A stretch of 64,000 nucleotides of DNA, from the NCBI RefSeq assembly GCF_025561425.1, contig NZ_CP094824.1, positions 1,302,001-1,366,000 on the forward strand. Direction: 5' to 3'. Both the position numbers and the translations under genes were made by a program. Shown here in pieces: positions 17,750-53,611 of this stretch. This stretch comes from Mammaliicoccus sciuri. Its GTDB lineage: Bacteria; Bacillota; Bacilli; Staphylococcales; Staphylococcaceae. The number at the start of each line of letters is the position of its first letter. Position 1 is the stretch's first letter. Under the pieces are notes generated by a model. The model saw only the letters and a list, made by a program, of their open reading frames with translations. It was not told where the DNA came from and searched no databases.

Positions 17750-18485
17750 ATGAAAAATTTAAAACGATACATATTAAGTGTAGTAGCAGTTTTATTATTA
17801 AGTTTCATTGCATTACCGTTTTGAAGTTAACGCAAAGACAGATGGTCCGTCATCAAGAGTTATATTACCGAAAAATGATCGTACACAAATTACGAATACA
17901 ACATCTGCACATTATCAATCGATTGCATTCGCTGATATCGGAGGTACATCAATTGCGTCAGGTGTAGTTGTCGGTAAAAATACCGTTCTTACAAATAAAC
18001 ACGTTGTAGATGCAACTAATGGTGATGCTTCTGTATTAAAATTCTCACCATCAGCAAATGGCAATGGTAATTTTCCAGTAGGAACATTTACAGCAACTGA
18101 TTACAAAGTAGCACCAGGCGGTGAAGATTTAGTAGTCGTTACAGTCGGTAAAAATAGTAAAGGTCAATCTATTGGTGACGCTGTTCAATCAGCGACAATA
18201 GCAGATACATCTTCAGTTAAAAAAGATGATAACATCACAGTAACAGGTTATCCAGGAGATAAACCTATTGCCACATTATGGGAAAGTAAAGGTAATGTGT
18301 TATCTGCTTCAGGTAGTAACATATCTTACGACTTAAGTACTTATGGTGGTAATTCAGGTTCACCAATCTTTAATGCAAATAACCAAGTTATTGGTTTACA
18401 TTATGGTGGCGTACCAAATAGCCATAACAGTGGCGTATTATTTAACAGCAACGTTCAACAATTTATACAAAGTAATTTAAAATAA
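17750..18485 (+). pseudogene. Secreted V8/Spl-type serine protease, frameshifted in the signal peptide
   Basis: The gene encodes a chymotrypsin-fold (S1B) extracellular protease related to staphylococcal Spl proteases and glutamyl endopeptidase. The triad is intact: His in TNKHVV (codon at 18000), Asp in GEDLVVV (18126), Ser in GGNSGSP (18354). The natural start, ATG 17750, follows GGGGAG. It encodes a signal peptide of about 24 residues but stops at TGA 17822. The mature part is in the next frame. Removing one T from the TTTT tract at 17819-17822 would join them as ...ALPFEVNAKTDGP. A TTG at 17808 could start the mature domain but without a signal peptide. A terminator follows. Confidence 0.88.
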
Positions 18486-19623: not shown

Positions 19624-19652
19624 TTGACTAATATGTAACTAAAAGTTATAAT
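19624..19652 (+). promoter_or_regulatory. Sigma-A promoter of the sal-like gene
   Basis: TTGACT (19624-19629), a 17-bp spacer and a perfect TATAAT (19647-19652) form a strong promoter. The transcript would start near 19659, about 200 bases before the sal start codon. Confidence 0.8.
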
Positions 19653-19658
19653 TAATGC

Positions 19659-19859
19659 AAAATTACAGAGAGGTGGCATCAACAATAGGCATGGATATCC
19701 AATAATTTTTTGCGCTAATAGTAAATAACGTAAAAAAACCATTGTGTTACGCAATGATGATTGGATAAGTATGTCTATAATATGATGTTGCCGTTACAAA
19801 CTGAGAATAGTGTAATGGTGCGTCTTCGTGTGTAATACATGGGTAGAGGAGGCTACATT
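19659..19859 (+). promoter_or_regulatory. Structured leader of the sal-like ABC-F gene
   Basis: The leader of about 200 nt has a Shine-Dalgarno-like GAGAGGTGG (19668-19676), a tiny open frame MDIQ (19691-19705), and nested stems: TATCCAAT 19696-19703 with ATTGGATA 19760-19767, and TTGCG 19710-19714 with CGCAA 19750-19754. A further CCGTTAC/GTAATGG stem lies at 19791-19818. The outermost stem overlaps the small frame, as in ribosome-mediated attenuators known for other ABC-F resistance genes. Function is inferred. Confidence 0.5.
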
Positions 19860-21485
19860 ATGCTATTTTTATTTGAAGAAAAGGCATTAGAAGTTGAACA
19901 TAAAGTATTAATACCCAAGTTGACTTTTTCAATAGAGGACCATGAACATTTAGCGATTGTTGGTGTTAATGGTGTTGGAAAGTCTACATTATTAAAAGTC
20001 ATTCATCAAGATCAAACAGTTGATTCAGCGATGATGCAACAGGATTTAACACCTTATTATGATTGGACTGTTATGGATTATATAATTGAATCTTATCCTG
20101 AAATCGCAAAGATTAGATTGCAACTTAATCATACAGATATGATTAATAAATATATTGAATTAGATGGATACCTTATAGAAGGTGAAATCATAACAGAAGC
20201 AAAAAAGCTCGGTATAAAAGAGGAACAACTAGAACAGAAAATTGTTACTTTAAGTGGTGGAGAACAGACAAAAGTATCATTTTTAAAAGTGAAAATGTCT
20301 AAGGCATCATTATTATTAATAGATGAACCAACAAATCATATGGATTTAGAAATGAAGGAATGGTTGAGGATAGCTTTTAAGCAAGAACAACGTGCTATAT
20401 TATTTGTCTCTCATGACCGAACATTCTTAAATGAAACACCAGATGCTATATTAGAATTGAGTCGTGATGGGGCTAAAAAATATATCGGTAAATACGATAA
20501 ATACAAACAACAAAAAGATATAGAGCATGAAACTTTAAAGCTATAGTATGAAAAGCAACAAAAAGAACAAGCGGCTATTGAAGAAACGATTAAAAAATAT
20601 AAAGCATGGTATCAAAAAGCAGTACAAAGTGCTTCTGTAAGAAACCCATATCAACAAAAACAATTAAGTAAGTTAGCGAAACGGTTTAAATCAAAAGAAC
20701 AACAATTAAATCGTAAACTTAATCAAGAGCACATCGCTAATCCACGTAAAAAAGAGAAAGCTTTCTCAATACAACATCATGATTTTAAATCACATTATTT
20801 AGTTCAATTTAATCATGTTTCGTTTGCTTATGATAATCGAAAAATATTCGAAGATGTATCATTCTATATTAAGCGATATCAAAATGTGATTATAGAAGGC
20901 AGAAATGGTACAGGTAAATCAACTTTAATCAAATTGATACTCGGTGAACTCGATCCGACTAAAGGTGATATAACTGTTCATCCTGAATTAGAAATTGGAT
21001 ATTTCTCTCAAGATTTTGAGAATTTAAATATGCACCATACTTTTTTAGATGAAATATTAGAAATTCCTGAAATGAAAGAAGCTGATGCAAGAACCATATT
21101 AGCAAGTTTTTATTTTGATAAAGATAGAATAAATGATGTTGTTGAAACGCTGTCGATGGGTGAAAAATGTAGGTTACAATTTGTGAAATTATATTTTTCA
21201 AATCCTCATATTATGATTTTAGATGAGCCAACAAACTATTTTGATATTGGCATGCAAGAAAAAATCATTCAATTAATACAATCATTTCAAGGTACGGTCC
21301 TTATTGTATCTCATGATGATTATTTTAAATCACAAATTAAAGATCAAACTTGGACGATAAAAAATTATCAAATGACGCATGAAAATGTTCAAGTTAAAGC
21401 TCCTATTAATACAGAATCTATGAAACATCAATTAAAAGAATTAGAACAATATACAGATGAAAGAAATCGTGAAACAGAGTTCTAG
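19860..21485 (+). pseudogene. sal(A): Sal(A)-like ABC-F ribosomal protection protein, interrupted by an amber codon
   Basis: ABC-F proteins of this type displace lincosamides, streptogramin A and pleuromutilins from the ribosome. Start to stop spans exactly 1626 bp (541 codons), the length I recall for sal(A). The first ATPase has GVNGVGKST, LSGGEQ and LLIDEPTNHMD. The second has GRNGTGKST, LSMGEK and MILDEPTNYFD. There is no membrane segment. One in-frame TAG at 20544-20546 (codon 229) splits the frame at the start of the interdomain linker; the sequence after it continues coherently (YEKQQKEQAAIEE). A CAG-to-TAG change is the simplest origin. The ATG at 19860 follows AGAGGAGG; an in-frame ATG at 19839 lies before that site and is not used. 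Confidence 0.85.
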
Positions 21486-21549: not shown

Positions 21550-23800
<2,251 letters not shown>

Positions 23801-36474: not shown

Positions 36475-36954
36475 ATGTCATCAGACACAAACAGTTTAGC
36501 ACATACAAAATGGAATTGTAAGTACCACATTGTGTTTGCACCAAAATATCGTAGACAAATTATTTATGGGAAAATTAAAAGAGATATTGGTATTATTTTA
36601 AGACAATTGTGTGAAAGAAAAGGTGTAGAAATAATAGAAGCTGAAGCATGTAAAGATCATATTCATATGTTAGTTAGCATTCCACCAAAGTTAAGTGTTT
36701 CTCAATTTGTAGGTTATTTAAAAGGTAAGAGCAGCTTAATGATATTTGATAGACATGCCCATTTAAAGTATAGATATGGTAACAGAAAATTTTGGTGTAA
36801 AGGATTTTATTTAGATACAGTTGGTAGAAATAAAAAAGTGATAGAAAATTATATAAGAAATCAATTACAAGAGGATATAGTAGCAGAACAGTTAACAATG
36901 ATAGAGTACATAGATCCTTTTACTGGGGAAGAAACTCGAAAGAAGAAAAAATAA
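36475..36954 (+). CDS. tnpA: IS200 family transposase TnpA (Y1 HUH)
   Basis: TnpA cuts and joins single-stranded transposon ends at subterminal hairpins. The 159-residue protein has the HUH motif His62-x-His64 (DHIHML) and the likely nucleophile Tyr126 in VIENYIRNQ, near the Y127 position of IS608 TnpA. There is no accompanying tnpB. The frame is intact, so the protein could be active, although the right end of the element is interrupted. Its ribosome binding site is in a hairpin. Confidence 0.92.
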   Translation: MSSDTNSLAHTKWNCKYHIVFAPKYRRQIIYGKIKRDIGIILRQLCERKGVEIIEAEACKDHIHMLVSIPPKLSVSQFVGYLKGKSSLMIFDRHAHLKYRYGNRKFWCKGFYLDTVGRNKKVIENYIRNQLQEDIVAEQLTMIEYIDPFTGEETRKKKK

Positions 36955-37065
36955 AACAACCCTTTTAAGGGTTGCTGGGAAAGTAGTACATTTGGCTGAT
37001 CTTCTCAGTGCCCTTTTAGGGCTGGTCAGTAATAGAGGCTTATAGCCGCAGAACAAACCACCCGT
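36955..37065 (+). other. Structured non-coding tail of the IS200 element
   Basis: Between the tnpA stop and the right-end hairpin there are three short stems: CAACCC/GGGTTG, GCCC-TTTTA-GGGC inside CTGA/TCAG, and GGCT-TATA-GCC. The order of stems before a terminal hairpin resembles the guide-RNA scaffold at the right end of IS200/IS605 elements, although no tnpB is present. This is an inference from layout only. Confidence 0.4.
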
Positions 37066-37068
37066 TAA
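37066..37068. repeat. TAA target duplication, left copy
   Basis: TAA borders the left IS3-type end; the matching copy is at 38535-38537. Both lie in the loop of the IS200 right-end hairpin. Confidence 0.7.
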
Positions 37069-37098
37069 GGTAGTGCCCCCCCAAAGTTAGAGTTTCCA

Positions 37099-37962
37099 TT
37101 ATGCTATTAATTGGCTGGATTGAGTTCGGTATTGTACTGGACTTCGTCCAGCCAATTTTAATTTCAAACGTTCATTGTTATACCAATAGATGTAATCCTC
37201 AATTCTTCTTTTTAATGTTTCATAGTTAACAAGTTCTTCTCCATGATACATTTCCTGCTTCATGATGCCAAAGAAATTCTCCATAGAAGCATTATCCGCA
37301 CACGTCGCTTTACGTGACATACTTTGATAAATCCTTTGTTCCGATAATCTTCTAATCCATGCATTATGCTGATAATGCCAACCTTGATCAGAATGTATCG
37401 TCGTACGATATGGTGCTTCATGCTTAATGATTGTAACTGCTTTATCCAATGATTGAAGTACTAAGTCTAATGTTGGTCTTCTGGATATACCATAAGAAAT
37501 GATTTCCCCATTGTATAAATCCATAATAGGGCTGAGATATAATTTTTGTTCTTCAGCACATTTAAATTCAGTGATATCTGTCACTAATTTTTGAAGTCGA
37601 ATAGATGTATGGAATCTACGATTCAAGCGATTTTCAGCCACTTTACCAACTGTACCTTTGTATGATTGATAGCGTGATTTACGTGTGAATTTTTGACATT
37701 TTAATCCTAGTTCTCGCATAATTCGTTGTACTTTCTTATGGTTAATGAGATAACCTTGATTTCTCAAAGCTAAATATATACGACGATAGCCGTATTTACC
37801 GTTGTGTTTTTGAAAAAGTTCAATGATCTTTTTCTTCCAACCTTTATCTAAATCTTCCTTTTGTAATTGTTTGGCATGGTAATGATAGGTTGCTTCTGGT
37901 ATACCAACCTTTACTAAGATATCTTTTAATTTGAATCCTTCTTCTTTGAGTTCGAATGCCAC
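37099..37962 (-). CDS. IS3-family transposase OrfB (DDE integrase domain)
   Basis: OrfB carries the catalytic core. It has an HTH_21-like N-terminus (YGYRRIYLALRNQGYLINHKKVQRIM) and the rve integrase domain with the DDE residues in VTDITEF, HSDQGWHY and NASMENFFG. The 287 residues start at a GTG, but the frame is open further upstream. It is probably made as an OrfAB fusion by -1 frameshifting; a candidate A-AAG slip site is at about 37974-37978. Nothing appears broken. Confidence 0.9.
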   Translation of the reverse strand: MAFELKEEGFKLKDILVKVGIPEATYHYHAKQLQKEDLDKGWKKKIIELFQKHNGKYGYRRIYLALRNQGYLINHKKVQRIMRELGLKCQKFTRKSRYQSYKGTVGKVAENRLNRRFHTSIRLQKLVTDITEFKCAEEQKLYLSPIMDLYNGEIISYGISRRPTLDLVLQSLDKAVTIIKHEAPYRTTIHSDQGWHYQHNAWIRRLSEQRIYQSMSRKATCADNASMENFFGIMKQEMYHGEELVNYETLKRRIEDYIYWYNNERLKLKLAGRSPVQYRTQSSQLIA

Positions 37963-38477
37963 TGCTGCTTGTGCTTTTCTAGAAAGGCACTCGGATTCTC
38001 TCGAAAAGCGTTCAACTTTTTTAAATAAGCATTCTCTAATCGAAGATTTTCATTTTCTAGCTCTAACTCTTTTTCTCGTGATAGGTTTTGATTAGATTTC
38101 TTCTGTTTCTTCTTTTTCATGGGAGGTCGTCCTTTCGGCTTTTCGAGTCCTTCCACACCTTCTTTGTCATATATCTTTTTCCATCGCACAATAATAGATG
38201 GGGTATTTAGGCCAAATTTAATCGCTGTATCTTGGAAGGAATCGCCTGTTCTTTTCATATAGTTTAATACATTTATTTTGAATGTAACAGAATAAACTGT
38301 CTTTTTCTGTTTCTTTTTAATGCCATCTACACCGAATGATTGAAAGGCTTTTACCCATGTTCGTATAATAATTTTATCAGGTATATTATATTTTTTAGCT
38401 AATTTTCGATAACCATAATGGCCATCTAGATAATCTCTTACAACTTTCAACTTAAATTCATCACTATATTTTGTCAT
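37926..38477 (-). CDS. IS3-family transposase OrfA (helix-turn-helix)
   Basis: OrfA (183 residues) binds the element ends. It has two helix-turn-helix units (about residues 1-55 and 60-115, including GYRKLAKKYNIP and FQDTAIKFGLN). A basic stretch and a C-terminal leucine-rich coiled coil (ELELENENLRLENAYLKKL) follow. It overlaps orfB by 37 bases in the -1 frame. The start codon follows AGGGGGTG, which lies in a hairpin with the inverted repeat. Confidence 0.88.
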   Translation of the reverse strand: MTKYSDEFKLKVVRDYLDGHYGYRKLAKKYNIPDKIIIRTWVKAFQSFGVDGIKKKQKKTVYSVTFKINVLNYMKRTGDSFQDTAIKFGLNTPSIIVRWKKIYDKEGVEGLEKPKGRPPMKKKKQKKSNQNLSREKELELENENLRLENAYLKKLNAFRENPSAFLEKHKQQWHSNSKKKDSN

Positions 38478-38547: not shown

Positions 38548-38612
38548 TTGATTATATATAAATCATGGTATTATGATAAAGTATAATTGTTTTAATAATC
38601 TGATTATTAAAA
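38548..38612 (+). promoter_or_regulatory. Promoter region and palindrome of the pxp operon
   Basis: A perfect 10-bp inverted repeat TTTTAATAAT-CTG-ATTATTAAAA (38590-38612) lies just after a TATAAT (38582-38587), an operator-like position. A second possible promoter is TTGATT (38548-38553) with TATGAT (38572-38577), 18 bp apart; its -35 falls at the end of the IS200 element. No B. subtilis-type kipR gene is nearby, so the regulator is unknown. Confidence 0.5.
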
Positions 38613-38635
38613 GCGTTAACAAAGGGGTGGTAAAA

Positions 38636-39361
38636 TTGGATATTAAGCAAGTGAGTGAGACGCATTTTATGATTTATGAACAAAATGAAATCAGTCCAGA
38701 AATAAGGAATAAAATTTCGACGATTGCTTTACATATTGAATCTTTGCAGCATCCAGCTGTTATAAGTGTGACATCATCATATCGATCAATCATGATTGCA
38801 TTTGATGCAAAACAATATACATATGAAACAATCCTTAATGAACTAGACTTGCATCATTTAAATCTTAATCAAGAAAATGCATCACGGTCAAAAAAATTGA
38901 TTACATTACCAGTTGTATATGGTGGTGAATTTGGTCCAGATTTAAATATTGTTGCTGAACATGCACAATTAACTGAAGAAGATGTGATTCAAATACATAC
39001 GGAAGACAATTATTTGATTTATGCAATTGGATTTTTACCTGGCTTTCCATTTTTAGGGGGATTAAATAAGAAAATACATACACCTAGAAAGGAAACTCCG
39101 AGAAGTAAAATCGTCCAAGGATCTGTTGGAATTGCAAATAATCAAACAGGACTTTATCCGAAATCATCACCAGGCGGATGGCAAATTATTGGTCGAACAC
39201 CAATAGATGTTTTTAACTTAGATCGTGAGCCTATGATTTTATATGAAGCTGGAGACTATATTGCTTTTAAAGCTATTCATCAAGAAGAATTTACGCGAAT
39301 TGAAGACGAAATTGCAAATGGCACATTTGATTATAGTCAGTTAGTAGGTGATTTGAAATGA
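38636..39361 (+). CDS. pxpB: 5-oxoprolinase subunit PxpB (KipI / CT_C_D domain)
   Basis: PxpB with PxpA and PxpC hydrolyses 5-oxoproline to glutamate using ATP in B. subtilis. The product is 241 residues from TTG 38636, which follows AAGGGGTGG; the longer frame from 38573 has no site. Conserved segments are PVVYGGEFGPDL and GFLPGFPFLGGL. The same domain (AHS1) forms half of the carboxyltransferase of urea carboxylase. It overlaps pxpC by 4 bases. Confidence 0.9.
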   Translation: MDIKQVSETHFMIYEQNEISPEIRNKISTIALHIESLQHPAVISVTSSYRSIMIAFDAKQYTYETILNELDLHHLNLNQENASRSKKLITLPVVYGGEFGPDLNIVAEHAQLTEEDVIQIHTEDNYLIYAIGFLPGFPFLGGLNKKIHTPRKETPRSKIVQGSVGIANNQTGLYPKSSPGGWQIIGRTPIDVFNLDREPMILYEAGDYIAFKAIHQEEFTRIEDEIANGTFDYSQLVGDLK

Positions 39362-51325: not shown

Positions 51326-53611
51326 ATGTGGTTTTATTTTGCACTTTATTTATTGTCTGGTTTAATTTTCTTTGTACATCCTTATGTAAGTATAGTCATG
51401 CTCATTATCTTAGTTATAAGTTGCTATATTAAATGGCAATCATTAAAAATTTTGGTGATGAGCTTTATATTTTTTATGATAGGTTACTTAATTTATCCGA
51501 ATGATCCAATACAATATTACGAATCATTTAACGTTTCAATAAATCATAAAAATTATACTGAAATGATTCAGTTTGGAGATAAAATAACGATTGATGGAGA
51601 CGGCGTTCAAGCTGAAGGACAAATCCATAATCAAACGTATAAAGCATTTTATACGATTAAAAATGAAAAAGAAAAGCTTAAACTTCAGAAGAAAATGCCT
51701 TATTTAAAAAATTGCCGTATTACTTACTCTGTAAATCAAATTTTACCAAATACTAACGCATTAAAATTTCAATACTTTGAGTTTTTGCAAAATCATGATA
51801 TTAAAGGTGTTATTAAGATAGAACACTTATTTTTAAATACTTGTACGAGTCGGTCATTAACTATTATCGAACGAATTTAATTCATGAAATGAAACAACTT
51901 GATATAGATGGTGTTGATGATATTATTGCGCTCACGTTAGGTGATACAAGTTATTTAGGTGAAGAAAGAATAGATCAACTTAAGAAATTAGGTATATATC
52001 ATTTATATGCTGTAAGTGGATCGCATGTCGCATTGTTAAATATATTTTATTTAAATTATTACTTAGGATGAACATCAAATATCATCATGCCGAGAATATG
52101 ATATTTATACTGTTACCAATATACGCTGTCTTAACTGGTTTAAGTCCGAGTGTTCTTAGAGCAGTAGGGGTAGTAATGGTTTATATGATTTTGAATAAAG
52201 TCATGAAAATAGACGCTTTACAAATACTATCTATCACTTTCATTGTTTATACAATTTATAATCCTCATATTATTTTTGATATTGGTTTCCAATTATCCTA
52301 TATCGTCTCCACGTTTATCATTTTATGTGTACCACTTATAAAATCTTTCAATACAATCCACAAAATCATTACGATTAATGTCGTATCTCAATTATCTTCA
52401 TTTGTCATATTACTGATTCACTTTAATGCTTTTCAATGGCTAGGATTTATAACAAACTTTCTTTTTATTCCACTTTTTGAATTAATTATTTTTCCACTTG
52501 TGATGTTATTCATGTTGATGTTTGCCACTTTTGGTAAAGTTCCCAATTTATTTGCGACAATAATAGAAATTTGTATGAATCAAACTTTTAAATTAATAGA
52601 TGTTATGAGTCGTATTCCTATAAATGAGTTAGTCGTAAGAAATCTATCCGAATGAATATATTTAATCATACTTATTATAGTAGTGTTAATGTTATTTATT
52701 AAAAAGAAATATATAACATCTTTACTCCTTTTCACAATGTTAGTCATTGCCATCACATATCATTTTAATCATAACGAGGTTGTTTTAAAATTTATTGATA
52801 TTGGTCAAGGAGATGCAATGGTTGCTTATCATCAGGATGTGAATCAAGTTGTGATGATAGATACTGGTGGTAAAGATAAATTGAAGAAGAAACCATGGCA
52901 AACTAGAAGTAAAATATCAAATTATACAGATTCAATTATCGTGCCAGAACTTAAAGAAAAGGGATTTCAAAAAATTGATTATTTAATCATTACACATCCA
53001 CATGTAGATCATATGGGAGAATTAGCTACTTTGAGTAAAAAATATCAATCAAACATTTAATTATCAACAAGAAGACTTGGGACAGCCATGAATTGAAACA
53101 TTTGTTAGAAGAGGTTAAAGAAACGAACACACAAATTGTAGATAGCTCAAATTTGAATGAATTAAAGGTTGGAGAATCGACGTATAAATTTTTTAACCAA
53201 AATAGTCCGAATTATGAAGATAAGAATGATACATCAATCGTTACTGAAATCACTTCGTTTGGCAGAACGATATTAACAACAGGTGATGCAACAGTAGAGG
53301 TAGAGGAAAGTATATTGAGTCAATTTATAGGTGATTATGATATTTTAAAAGTGGCGCATCATGGTAGTTTAACAAGTACAAGTGATAGCTTTTTAATAAA
53401 AGCAAAGCCACAAATTTGTGTTATAAGTTCTGGACGTCATAATAGGCATGGGCTACCGAAAGCGGCCATTGTAAATAAACTTAAACAAAACAATTGTAAA
53501 GTATTCAATACACAAGATTATGGAATGGTGCAATTTAAGATCAATAAAGACAACATGATGATGACACATGGACTACAAGAATATAATAAAAAAGCTTACA
53601 ATCGACAGTAG
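51326..53611 (+). pseudogene. comEC: Competence channel protein ComEC, multiply disrupted
   Basis: ComEC forms the inner membrane channel for transforming single-stranded DNA. The locus spans about 760 codons, the full staphylococcal length, but is split in five pieces (51326-51880, 51841-52071, 52068-52655, 52683-53060, 53093-53611). Each of three shifts, near 51840, 52065 and 53050, fits loss of one base. At 53050 one A appears lost from an A-run, after which KHLIINKKTWDSHEL continues in the new frame. A TGA at 52653-52655 is an in-frame stop. The pieces still show the membrane Competence domain (LYAVSGSHVALL, ILFDIGFQLSY-like) and the metallo-beta-lactamase-like domain (IDIGQGDAM, THPHVDHMGE). 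No single fix restores it. Confidence 0.93.

What the first reader, a model, noticed from the sequence alone, without database searches (positions are those of the whole stretch)
19860..21485. sal(A)-like ABC-F resistance gene carries a single amber codon
The locus is full length (541 codons), in one frame, with both ATPase domains intact, but has TAG at codon 229 at the start of the interdomain linker. It looks like a recent point inactivation of an otherwise intrinsic Mammaliicoccus resistance gene. The strain is predicted to be susceptible to lincosamides and streptogramin A, unless the codon is suppressed or mixed in the population.
Basis: partly seen in the sequence, partly recalled or inferred. 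Interest (0 to 1): 0.72.

Follow-up and report, generated by a model that had tools for sequence, protein, structure and literature searches.

The report
Broken sal(A)-type antibiotic-resistance gene
This Mammaliicoccus sciuri-like bacterium carries a species-typical antibiotic-resistance gene that one stop codon cuts after its first half, so the gene is probably dead; losses of this gene are already known, so the finding is mostly ordinary.

Summary
A sal(A)-type ABC-F frame runs from 19860 to 21485 with one in-frame TAG at 20544-20546 (codon 229). Both sides match NCBIfam ABCF_Sal over nearly their whole length. It is the only sal found in a single-contig 2.92-Mb genome. All 7 other same-genus species genomes examined carry an uninterrupted copy. 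The nearest is M. sciuri NCTC 12103, about 96% identical in DNA over the aligned blocks.

No suppressor tRNA was found (0 of 58 tRNAs has a CTA anticodon). There is no in-frame ATG, GTG or TTG for 339 bases after the stop. The best reading is a recent nonsense pseudogene, with no clear excess of amino-acid changes on its branch. A sequencing error cannot be excluded without reads.

The phenomenon is known: Mohamad et al. 2022 report that sal is ancestral, repeatedly lost, and pseudogenised in some strains. My survey found another in-frame stop in a second species.

The more novel item lies upstream: a structured leader of about 200 nt, conserved before sal in 8 of 8 genomes of the genus, without an Rfam match, and attenuator-like. 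It is intact here.

The parts
19624..19652 (+). promoter-like site TTGACT-17-TATAAT before sal
   Evidence: 11 of 12 consensus positions, the best in the region; the scan found 14 sites against 13.9 expected in shuffles, so the scan alone proves nothing. The two hexamers, with at most one change in each, recur before sal in the 7 relatives printed.
19667..19859 (+). conserved structured leader RNA of sal
   Evidence: Aligned in 8 of 8 genomes of the genus; for 19650-19862 minimum free energy z -3.87, 0 of 200 shuffles as stable. Model R1, built from these 8 sequences, hits only this locus in its own genome and, of 108 family genomes, only the 8 it was built from.
19672..19679 (+). leader segment 1 (pairs with segment 2)
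   Evidence: 62 of 64 cells are standard pairs, but no pair changes on both sides.
19785..19798 (+). leader segment 2 (pairs with segment 1, or alternatively with segment 3)
   Evidence: The 2:3 alternative: 79 of 88 cells paired over 11 candidate pairs; the outermost candidate pairs in 0 of 8; one pair changes on both sides.
19811..19826 (+). leader segment 3 (pairs with segment 2 or with the ribosome-binding-site arm)
   Evidence: the 3:4 pairing has 61 of 62 cells paired, no pair with a double change.
19847..19856 (+). leader segment 4, contains the sal ribosome-binding site GGAGG (19848-19852)
   Evidence: Sequence and predicted pairing.
19860..20543 (+). 5' part of the sal(A)-type gene: first ATPase domain, 228 codons
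   Evidence: ABCF_Sal positions 1-226, 330.1 bits; ABC_tran 65.3 bits.
20544..20546 (+). in-frame amber codon, codon 229
   Evidence: Direct reading; tallied as '1 TAG' by the family searches; a sense codon stands there in 7 of 7 same-genus relatives.
20547..21485 (+). 3' part of the sal(A)-type gene: interdomain linker, second ATPase domain, C-terminal tail, own stop
   Evidence: ABCF_Sal positions 230-542, 490.5 bits; ABC_tran 88.1 bits.
21550..22698 (+). cysteine desulfurase gene, the known downstream neighbour of sal
   Evidence: ORF, name from sequence features and recall; PMC8887462 section 17 gives cysteine desulfurase as the downstream gene of sal.

Best explanation
This is the intrinsic chromosomal sal(A)-type gene of an M. 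sciuri-like strain, recently inactivated by a single codon change to amber at the junction of the first ATPase domain and the interdomain linker. Translation ends there and releases a single-ATPase fragment. It lacks the linker that reaches the peptidyl transferase centre and the second ATPase domain needed to sandwich ATP, so it cannot protect the ribosome from lincosamides, streptogramin A or pleuromutilins. Shown here: the stop, the intact remainder, a single copy, uninterrupted copies in relatives, no amber-reading tRNA found. Inferred: no function, susceptibility, recency.
For: The two pieces match ABCF_Sal positions 1-226 and 230-542 of 542. One sal copy found: the next best hit to the 3' piece is 36% identical. 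7 of 7 same-genus genomes are open at this codon. The 11 stretches that hold all 57 Rfam tRNA hits contain 58 tRNAs by ARAGORN, none with a CTA anticodon. No in-frame ATG, GTG or TTG between 20547 and the GTG at 20886. Sal(B) structure: the linker loop (residues 261-264) and the second ATPase domain lie downstream of residue 229 (PMC8887462 passages). dN/dS against M. sciuri NCTC 12103 is 0.105 for the 5' part and 0.160 for the 3' part. Polarised amino-acid changes: 9 on the window branch, 8 on the NCTC 12103 branch, 11 unresolved; silent changes 20, 21 and 2. The literature reports sal pseudogenised in some strains. Of 32 family genomes with a sal above the curated cut-off, 2 contain an in-frame stop, this one and G021.
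Against: No reads, no second strain of this lineage and no MIC were available, so an assembly error or a mixed culture is not excluded; the lack of relaxation is also what an error would give. The substitution test has little power (28 amino-acid differences) and the halves disagree: 5 window-branch against 1 NCTC-branch change in the 5' part, 4 against 7 in the 3' part; at three positions the window departs from a residue invariant in 7 of 7 relatives. The tRNA search scored 150 of 288 first-look candidates and ARAGORN found one tRNA that it had not listed, so the tRNA list may be incomplete.
Confidence: 0.83

Rival explanations
1. The stop is a sequencing or assembly error (or a mixed position) and the real gene is intact.
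For: No clear decay beyond the stop; other genes in the window look broken too (comEC, a V8-like protease), which could hint at residual assembly errors; no reads available.
Against: Single-contig genome of 99.97% completeness. It is a substitution, not a length change. Of 58 matched NCTC 12103 ORFs 53 were not flagged, and 2 of the 5 flagged are cut by the window's ends. comEC has several lesions and its pieces have dN/dS 0.146-0.346, as a true pseudogene could. sal with in-frame stops occurs in another species genome and in print.
Confidence: 0.12
2. The gene still works: the amber codon is read through, or the two halves are made separately and reassemble.
For: The downstream half is intact and not visibly relaxed; promoter-like site and leader are intact.
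Against: No tRNA with a CTA anticodon among 58 found. The first in-frame start-type codon after the stop is a GTG 339 bases on, at residue 114 of the piece, 12 residues inside the Pfam match of ATPase domain 2. 0 of 7 same-genus relatives has a stop here.
Confidence: 0.04
3. The short product (ATPase domain 1 alone) has been kept for another task.
For: The 5' part has dN/dS 0.105.
Against: In the 5' part 5 of the 6 resolved amino-acid changes lie on the window branch; no stand-alone version of the 5' part was seen among the 44 family genomes with a Sal-profile match (which would miss a short one at its threshold of 1e-110).
Confidence: 0.01

Closest known systems
sal(A) of Staphylococcus (Mammaliicoccus) sciuri, ARE6 ABC-F ribosome-protection family
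   Same: Family profile, two ATPase domains, chromosomal place beside cysteine desulfurase, close identity to the M. sciuri NCTC 12103 copy (96.1% of residues before the stop, 93.9% after it).
   Different: Interrupted by an amber codon at codon 229.
Pseudogenised sal genes reported by Mohamad et al. 2022 (PMC8887462; outline, sections 16 and 17 with the Figure 3 legend, and passages seen)
   Same: Loss of an ancestral sal in place, context conserved.
   Different: The text seen does not give the lesions; supplementary files were not read, so whether this very allele is shown there is unknown.
Leader-controlled ABC-F genes such as vmlR of Bacillus subtilis (PMC9226507; passages only, some from the abstract)
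   Same: Long structured leader before an intrinsic ABC-F gene.
   Different: vmlR also uses transcription attenuation with an intrinsic terminator; no terminator-like site was found here, and no upstream ORF is proven.

Membership tests
Sal-type (ARE6) ABC-F resistance gene | Best and specific match to the Sal family profile | tested here: met
   Pieces apart: 330.1 and 490.5 bits, best of all NCBIfam families for each. Neither piece alone reaches the whole-protein cut-off of 725; the genome search, which counts the stop and scores across it, gives 832.2.
Sal-type (ARE6) ABC-F resistance gene | Two ABC ATPase domains joined by a linker | tested here: met
   ABC_tran in each piece, linker sequence between them, at DNA level only.
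Sal-type (ARE6) ABC-F resistance gene | Conserved place upstream of cysteine desulfurase | tested here: met
   Window 21550-22698 directly downstream; place described in PMC8887462.
Sal-type (ARE6) ABC-F resistance gene | One continuous reading frame | tested here: not met
   TAG at 20544-20546. It is therefore filed as a pseudogene of the family, not a working member.
Sal-type (ARE6) ABC-F resistance gene | Confers resistance to lincosamides, streptogramin A, pleuromutilins | not testable with these tools
   Needs MICs of the strain.
ermC-like translational attenuator (for the leader; ermC scheme recalled) | Four segments with mutually exclusive pairings, the last hiding the gene's ribosome-binding site | tested here: inconclusive
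   1:2, 2:3 and 3:4 pairings: 62 of 64, 79 of 88 and 61 of 62 cells paired in 8 sequences, but covariation is weak: 3 of 60 pairs of the consensus change on both sides.
ermC-like translational attenuator (for the leader; ermC scheme recalled) | A translated short upstream ORF | tested here: inconclusive
   A short frame ending in the same stop exists in 8 of 8 (ATG-x-ATC-CAA-TAA, or a longer GTG start), but its distance from a ribosome-binding site is poor by eye.

The most novel reading that the evidence does not exclude
The sal genes of the whole genus Mammaliicoccus are switched on by an undescribed leader RNA: a core of about 125 nt that refolds when a drug-stalled ribosome (or a bound ligand) disturbs it and so frees the sal ribosome-binding site. 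In this strain the switch is intact while the gene behind it is dead, so the leader has outlived its gene.
Probability: 0.45. Interest if true: 0.45.

Novelty: new member of a known kind. Interest (0 to 1): 0.22.

Why it matters
It warns that a gene-presence call for sal(A) does not equal resistance: screening by similarity may report this locus although its product is cut in half (inference). It adds one case to the known repeated loss of sal. The conserved leader gives a testable lead on how intrinsic sal genes are controlled.

Tried and rejected
Amber suppression: judged unlikely on the tRNA set. Re-initiation: no suitable start. A second sal copy: none found in the genome. Mobile or plasmid sal: no match at E 1e-40 in 72,556 plasmid records. 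Another determinant for the same drugs: generic ABC-F hits over the curated cut-off are sal and three other proteins (frames of 544, 644 and 624 aa), with a fourth (547 aa) below it. Two of these (544 and 547 aa) were scanned and reach no Vga, Lsa, Msr or Sal subfamily cut-off; the 544-aa one does pass the generic 'ribosomal protection-like' cut-off (467 against 380 bits), so a contribution of its own is not excluded. The other two were only read as ORFs. The broad Erm model gives 0 hits over cut-off; its best hit, 163 against 212 bits, is probably KsgA (recalled). Genes of the lnu, vat and cfr kinds were not searched.

Rfam for the leader: only two sub-threshold eukaryotic snoRNA matches, taken as chance. 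The first leader alignment A1 had two rows from wrong coordinates and was discarded; one search likewise misread two minus-strand loci and was replaced.

Literature: 0 papers for sciuri + sal + 'premature stop codon' and 0 for sciuri + 'sal a' + pleuromutilin (the form 'sal a' may not match the printed gene name). Listings showed no title or abstract start on a sal leader or on this allele; PMC8887462 has 0 occurrences of 'leader' and of 'attenuat'. Papers opened: PMC8887462 (outline, sections 16 and 17, passages), PMC9226507 and PMC8407400 (passages). PMC10810581 was seen in the listing only. Hot et al. 2014, the first sal(A) description, is not held, so a leader may be described there.

Full report
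What is there. The window is 1302001-1366000 of a single-contig genome of 2,923,078 bases. From ATG 19860 the frame is open for 228 codons, meets TAG at 20544-20546, and is then open for 312 further codons to its own stop at 21483-21485. Searched apart, the two pieces match the NCBIfam Sal family profile at positions 1-226 and 230-542 of 542, better than any other family, and each holds an ABC ATPase domain. The lesion is thus one codon in an otherwise full-length gene.

Identity and place. The nearest named relative is M. sciuri NCTC 12103 (94% identity over the 3' piece; M. lentus follows at 69%). The gene lies directly before a cysteine desulfurase and mnmA (names from sequence features and recall), which is the known home of sal (PMC8887462 section 17). 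No plasmid record among 72,556 holds a relative at E 1e-40. It is the only sal found in the genome.

Is the stop peculiar to this genome? All 7 same-genus species genomes examined have an open frame of 545-556 aa through the region and a sense codon at this place. Of 108 genomes of the window's family (itself included), 44 have a Sal-profile match at 1e-110 and 32 exceed the curated cut-off. Of those 32, two contain an in-frame stop, this one (TAG) and G021 (TAA). In G021 the stop closes an N-terminal frame of 120 aa. A further genome, G084, matches only from profile position 105 on. Of the 12 matches below the cut-off, five also show stops in the matched range, but the rows do not say whether these are internal or terminal, so I do not count them.

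When was it lost? Against NCTC 12103, dN/dS is 0.105 before the stop and 0.160 after it. Of 61 window ORFs compared in that call, 46 lie below 0.105; 12 lie above the two sal ORFs, among them the four comEC pieces (0.146-0.346) and the protease ORF (0.216); one has no value. So sal evolves faster than most neighbours but far below neutrality. With six further species as outgroups, amino-acid differences fall 9 on the window branch, 8 on the NCTC 12103 branch and 11 unresolved; silent differences fall 20, 21 and 2. The halves disagree: 5 against 1 in the 5' part, 4 against 7 in the 3' part, and at three positions the window departs from a residue invariant in all 7 relatives. Overall there is no clear excess on the window branch, so the loss looks recent relative to that split. 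This also fits a sequencing error.

Could it still work? The genome's 57 Rfam tRNA hits lie in 11 stretches in which ARAGORN finds 58 tRNAs, none with anticodon CTA; the first look scored 150 of 288 candidates, so an odd tRNA could be missed. The first in-frame ATG, GTG or TTG after the stop is a GTG at 20886, 12 residues inside the Pfam match of the second ATPase domain. [quoted passage not shown] A product that ends at residue 228 has neither linker nor second domain. Loss of protection is inferred, not measured.

Error as a rival. Of 65 NCTC 12103 ORFs in the fetched stretch, 58 match the window; the other 7 lie beyond its ends. Of the 58, 5 were flagged: two are cut by the window's ends, the others are sal, comEC and a V8-like protease whose first 23 residues do not align. 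In the reverse comparison 61 of 64 window ORFs match (the other 3 are transposase ORFs) and 2 were flagged: a comEC piece, and 38573-39361, whose NCTC 12103 counterpart shows one stop in the aligned range. So lesions are rare but not unique to sal. My rough prior (inference, not a tool result): stops in sal occur in about 2 of 32 family genomes, whereas a stop-making error in one 1.6-kb gene of a well-polished genome is of the order of one in a thousand. I put error or mixture at 0.12.

The leader. Upstream lies a promoter-like TTGACT-17-TATAAT and then about 200 nt that are strikingly conserved in 8 of 8 genomes of the genus. The window's copy folds far better than shuffles (z -3.87, 0 of 200) and has no Rfam match above a gathering score. 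A model of its core (R1) finds it once in this genome. In 108 family genomes it finds only the 8 genomes that supplied its sequences, so this shows absence elsewhere at that sensitivity, not new members; stricter filters were used there and 32 candidates per genome were scored. Seven of the eight also show weaker opposite-strand hits at the same place, as a palindromic fold would. In 13 sal-like loci of other genera it finds one weak candidate at about the right place, in L029 (E 0.023), and one elsewhere, in L026 (E 0.42). Pairings 1:2, 2:3 and 3:4, of which 2:3 excludes the other two, are possible in nearly all sequences, and the last contains the sal ribosome-binding site. This resembles a translational attenuator, but covariation is weak because the sequences hardly vary (3 of 60 pairs), and the short upstream frame is not well placed for translation. 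I regard it as a lead, not a result.

Verdict. A confirmed, probably real and recent nonsense pseudogene of sal(A). The kind of event is in print; the allele may be new. The finding is of modest interest.

Noticed in passing
window 19667-19859: Conserved structured leader RNA before sal in all 8 genomes of the genus examined, without an Rfam match above gathering score; attenuator-like.
   Followed up: partly
window 51326-53611: comEC (DNA-uptake channel) lies in pieces in three frames with two in-frame stops, while a long frame (694-775 aa) is open in 5 of 5 same-genus genomes examined.
   Followed up: partly
window 17808-18485: A V8/trypsin-like protease ORF (name from motif, recalled): the first 23 residues of the NCTC 12103 counterpart do not align in frame here.
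   Followed up: no
window 36475-38477: An IS200/IS605-type transposase (36475-36954) and IS3-type transposase ORFs (37099-38477), inserted between genes that look like greA and a 5-oxoprolinase subunit (recalled); all three ORFs have no match in the NCTC 12103 stretch (the 37926-38477 ORF was not scanned).
   Followed up: no
L018 3188-3338: The sal leader of G003 (M. lentus by contig position) carries an internal tandem duplication of about 25 nt.
   Followed up: no
L032 775-2442: A second species genome (G021) has its own in-frame stop early in sal.
   Followed up: partly
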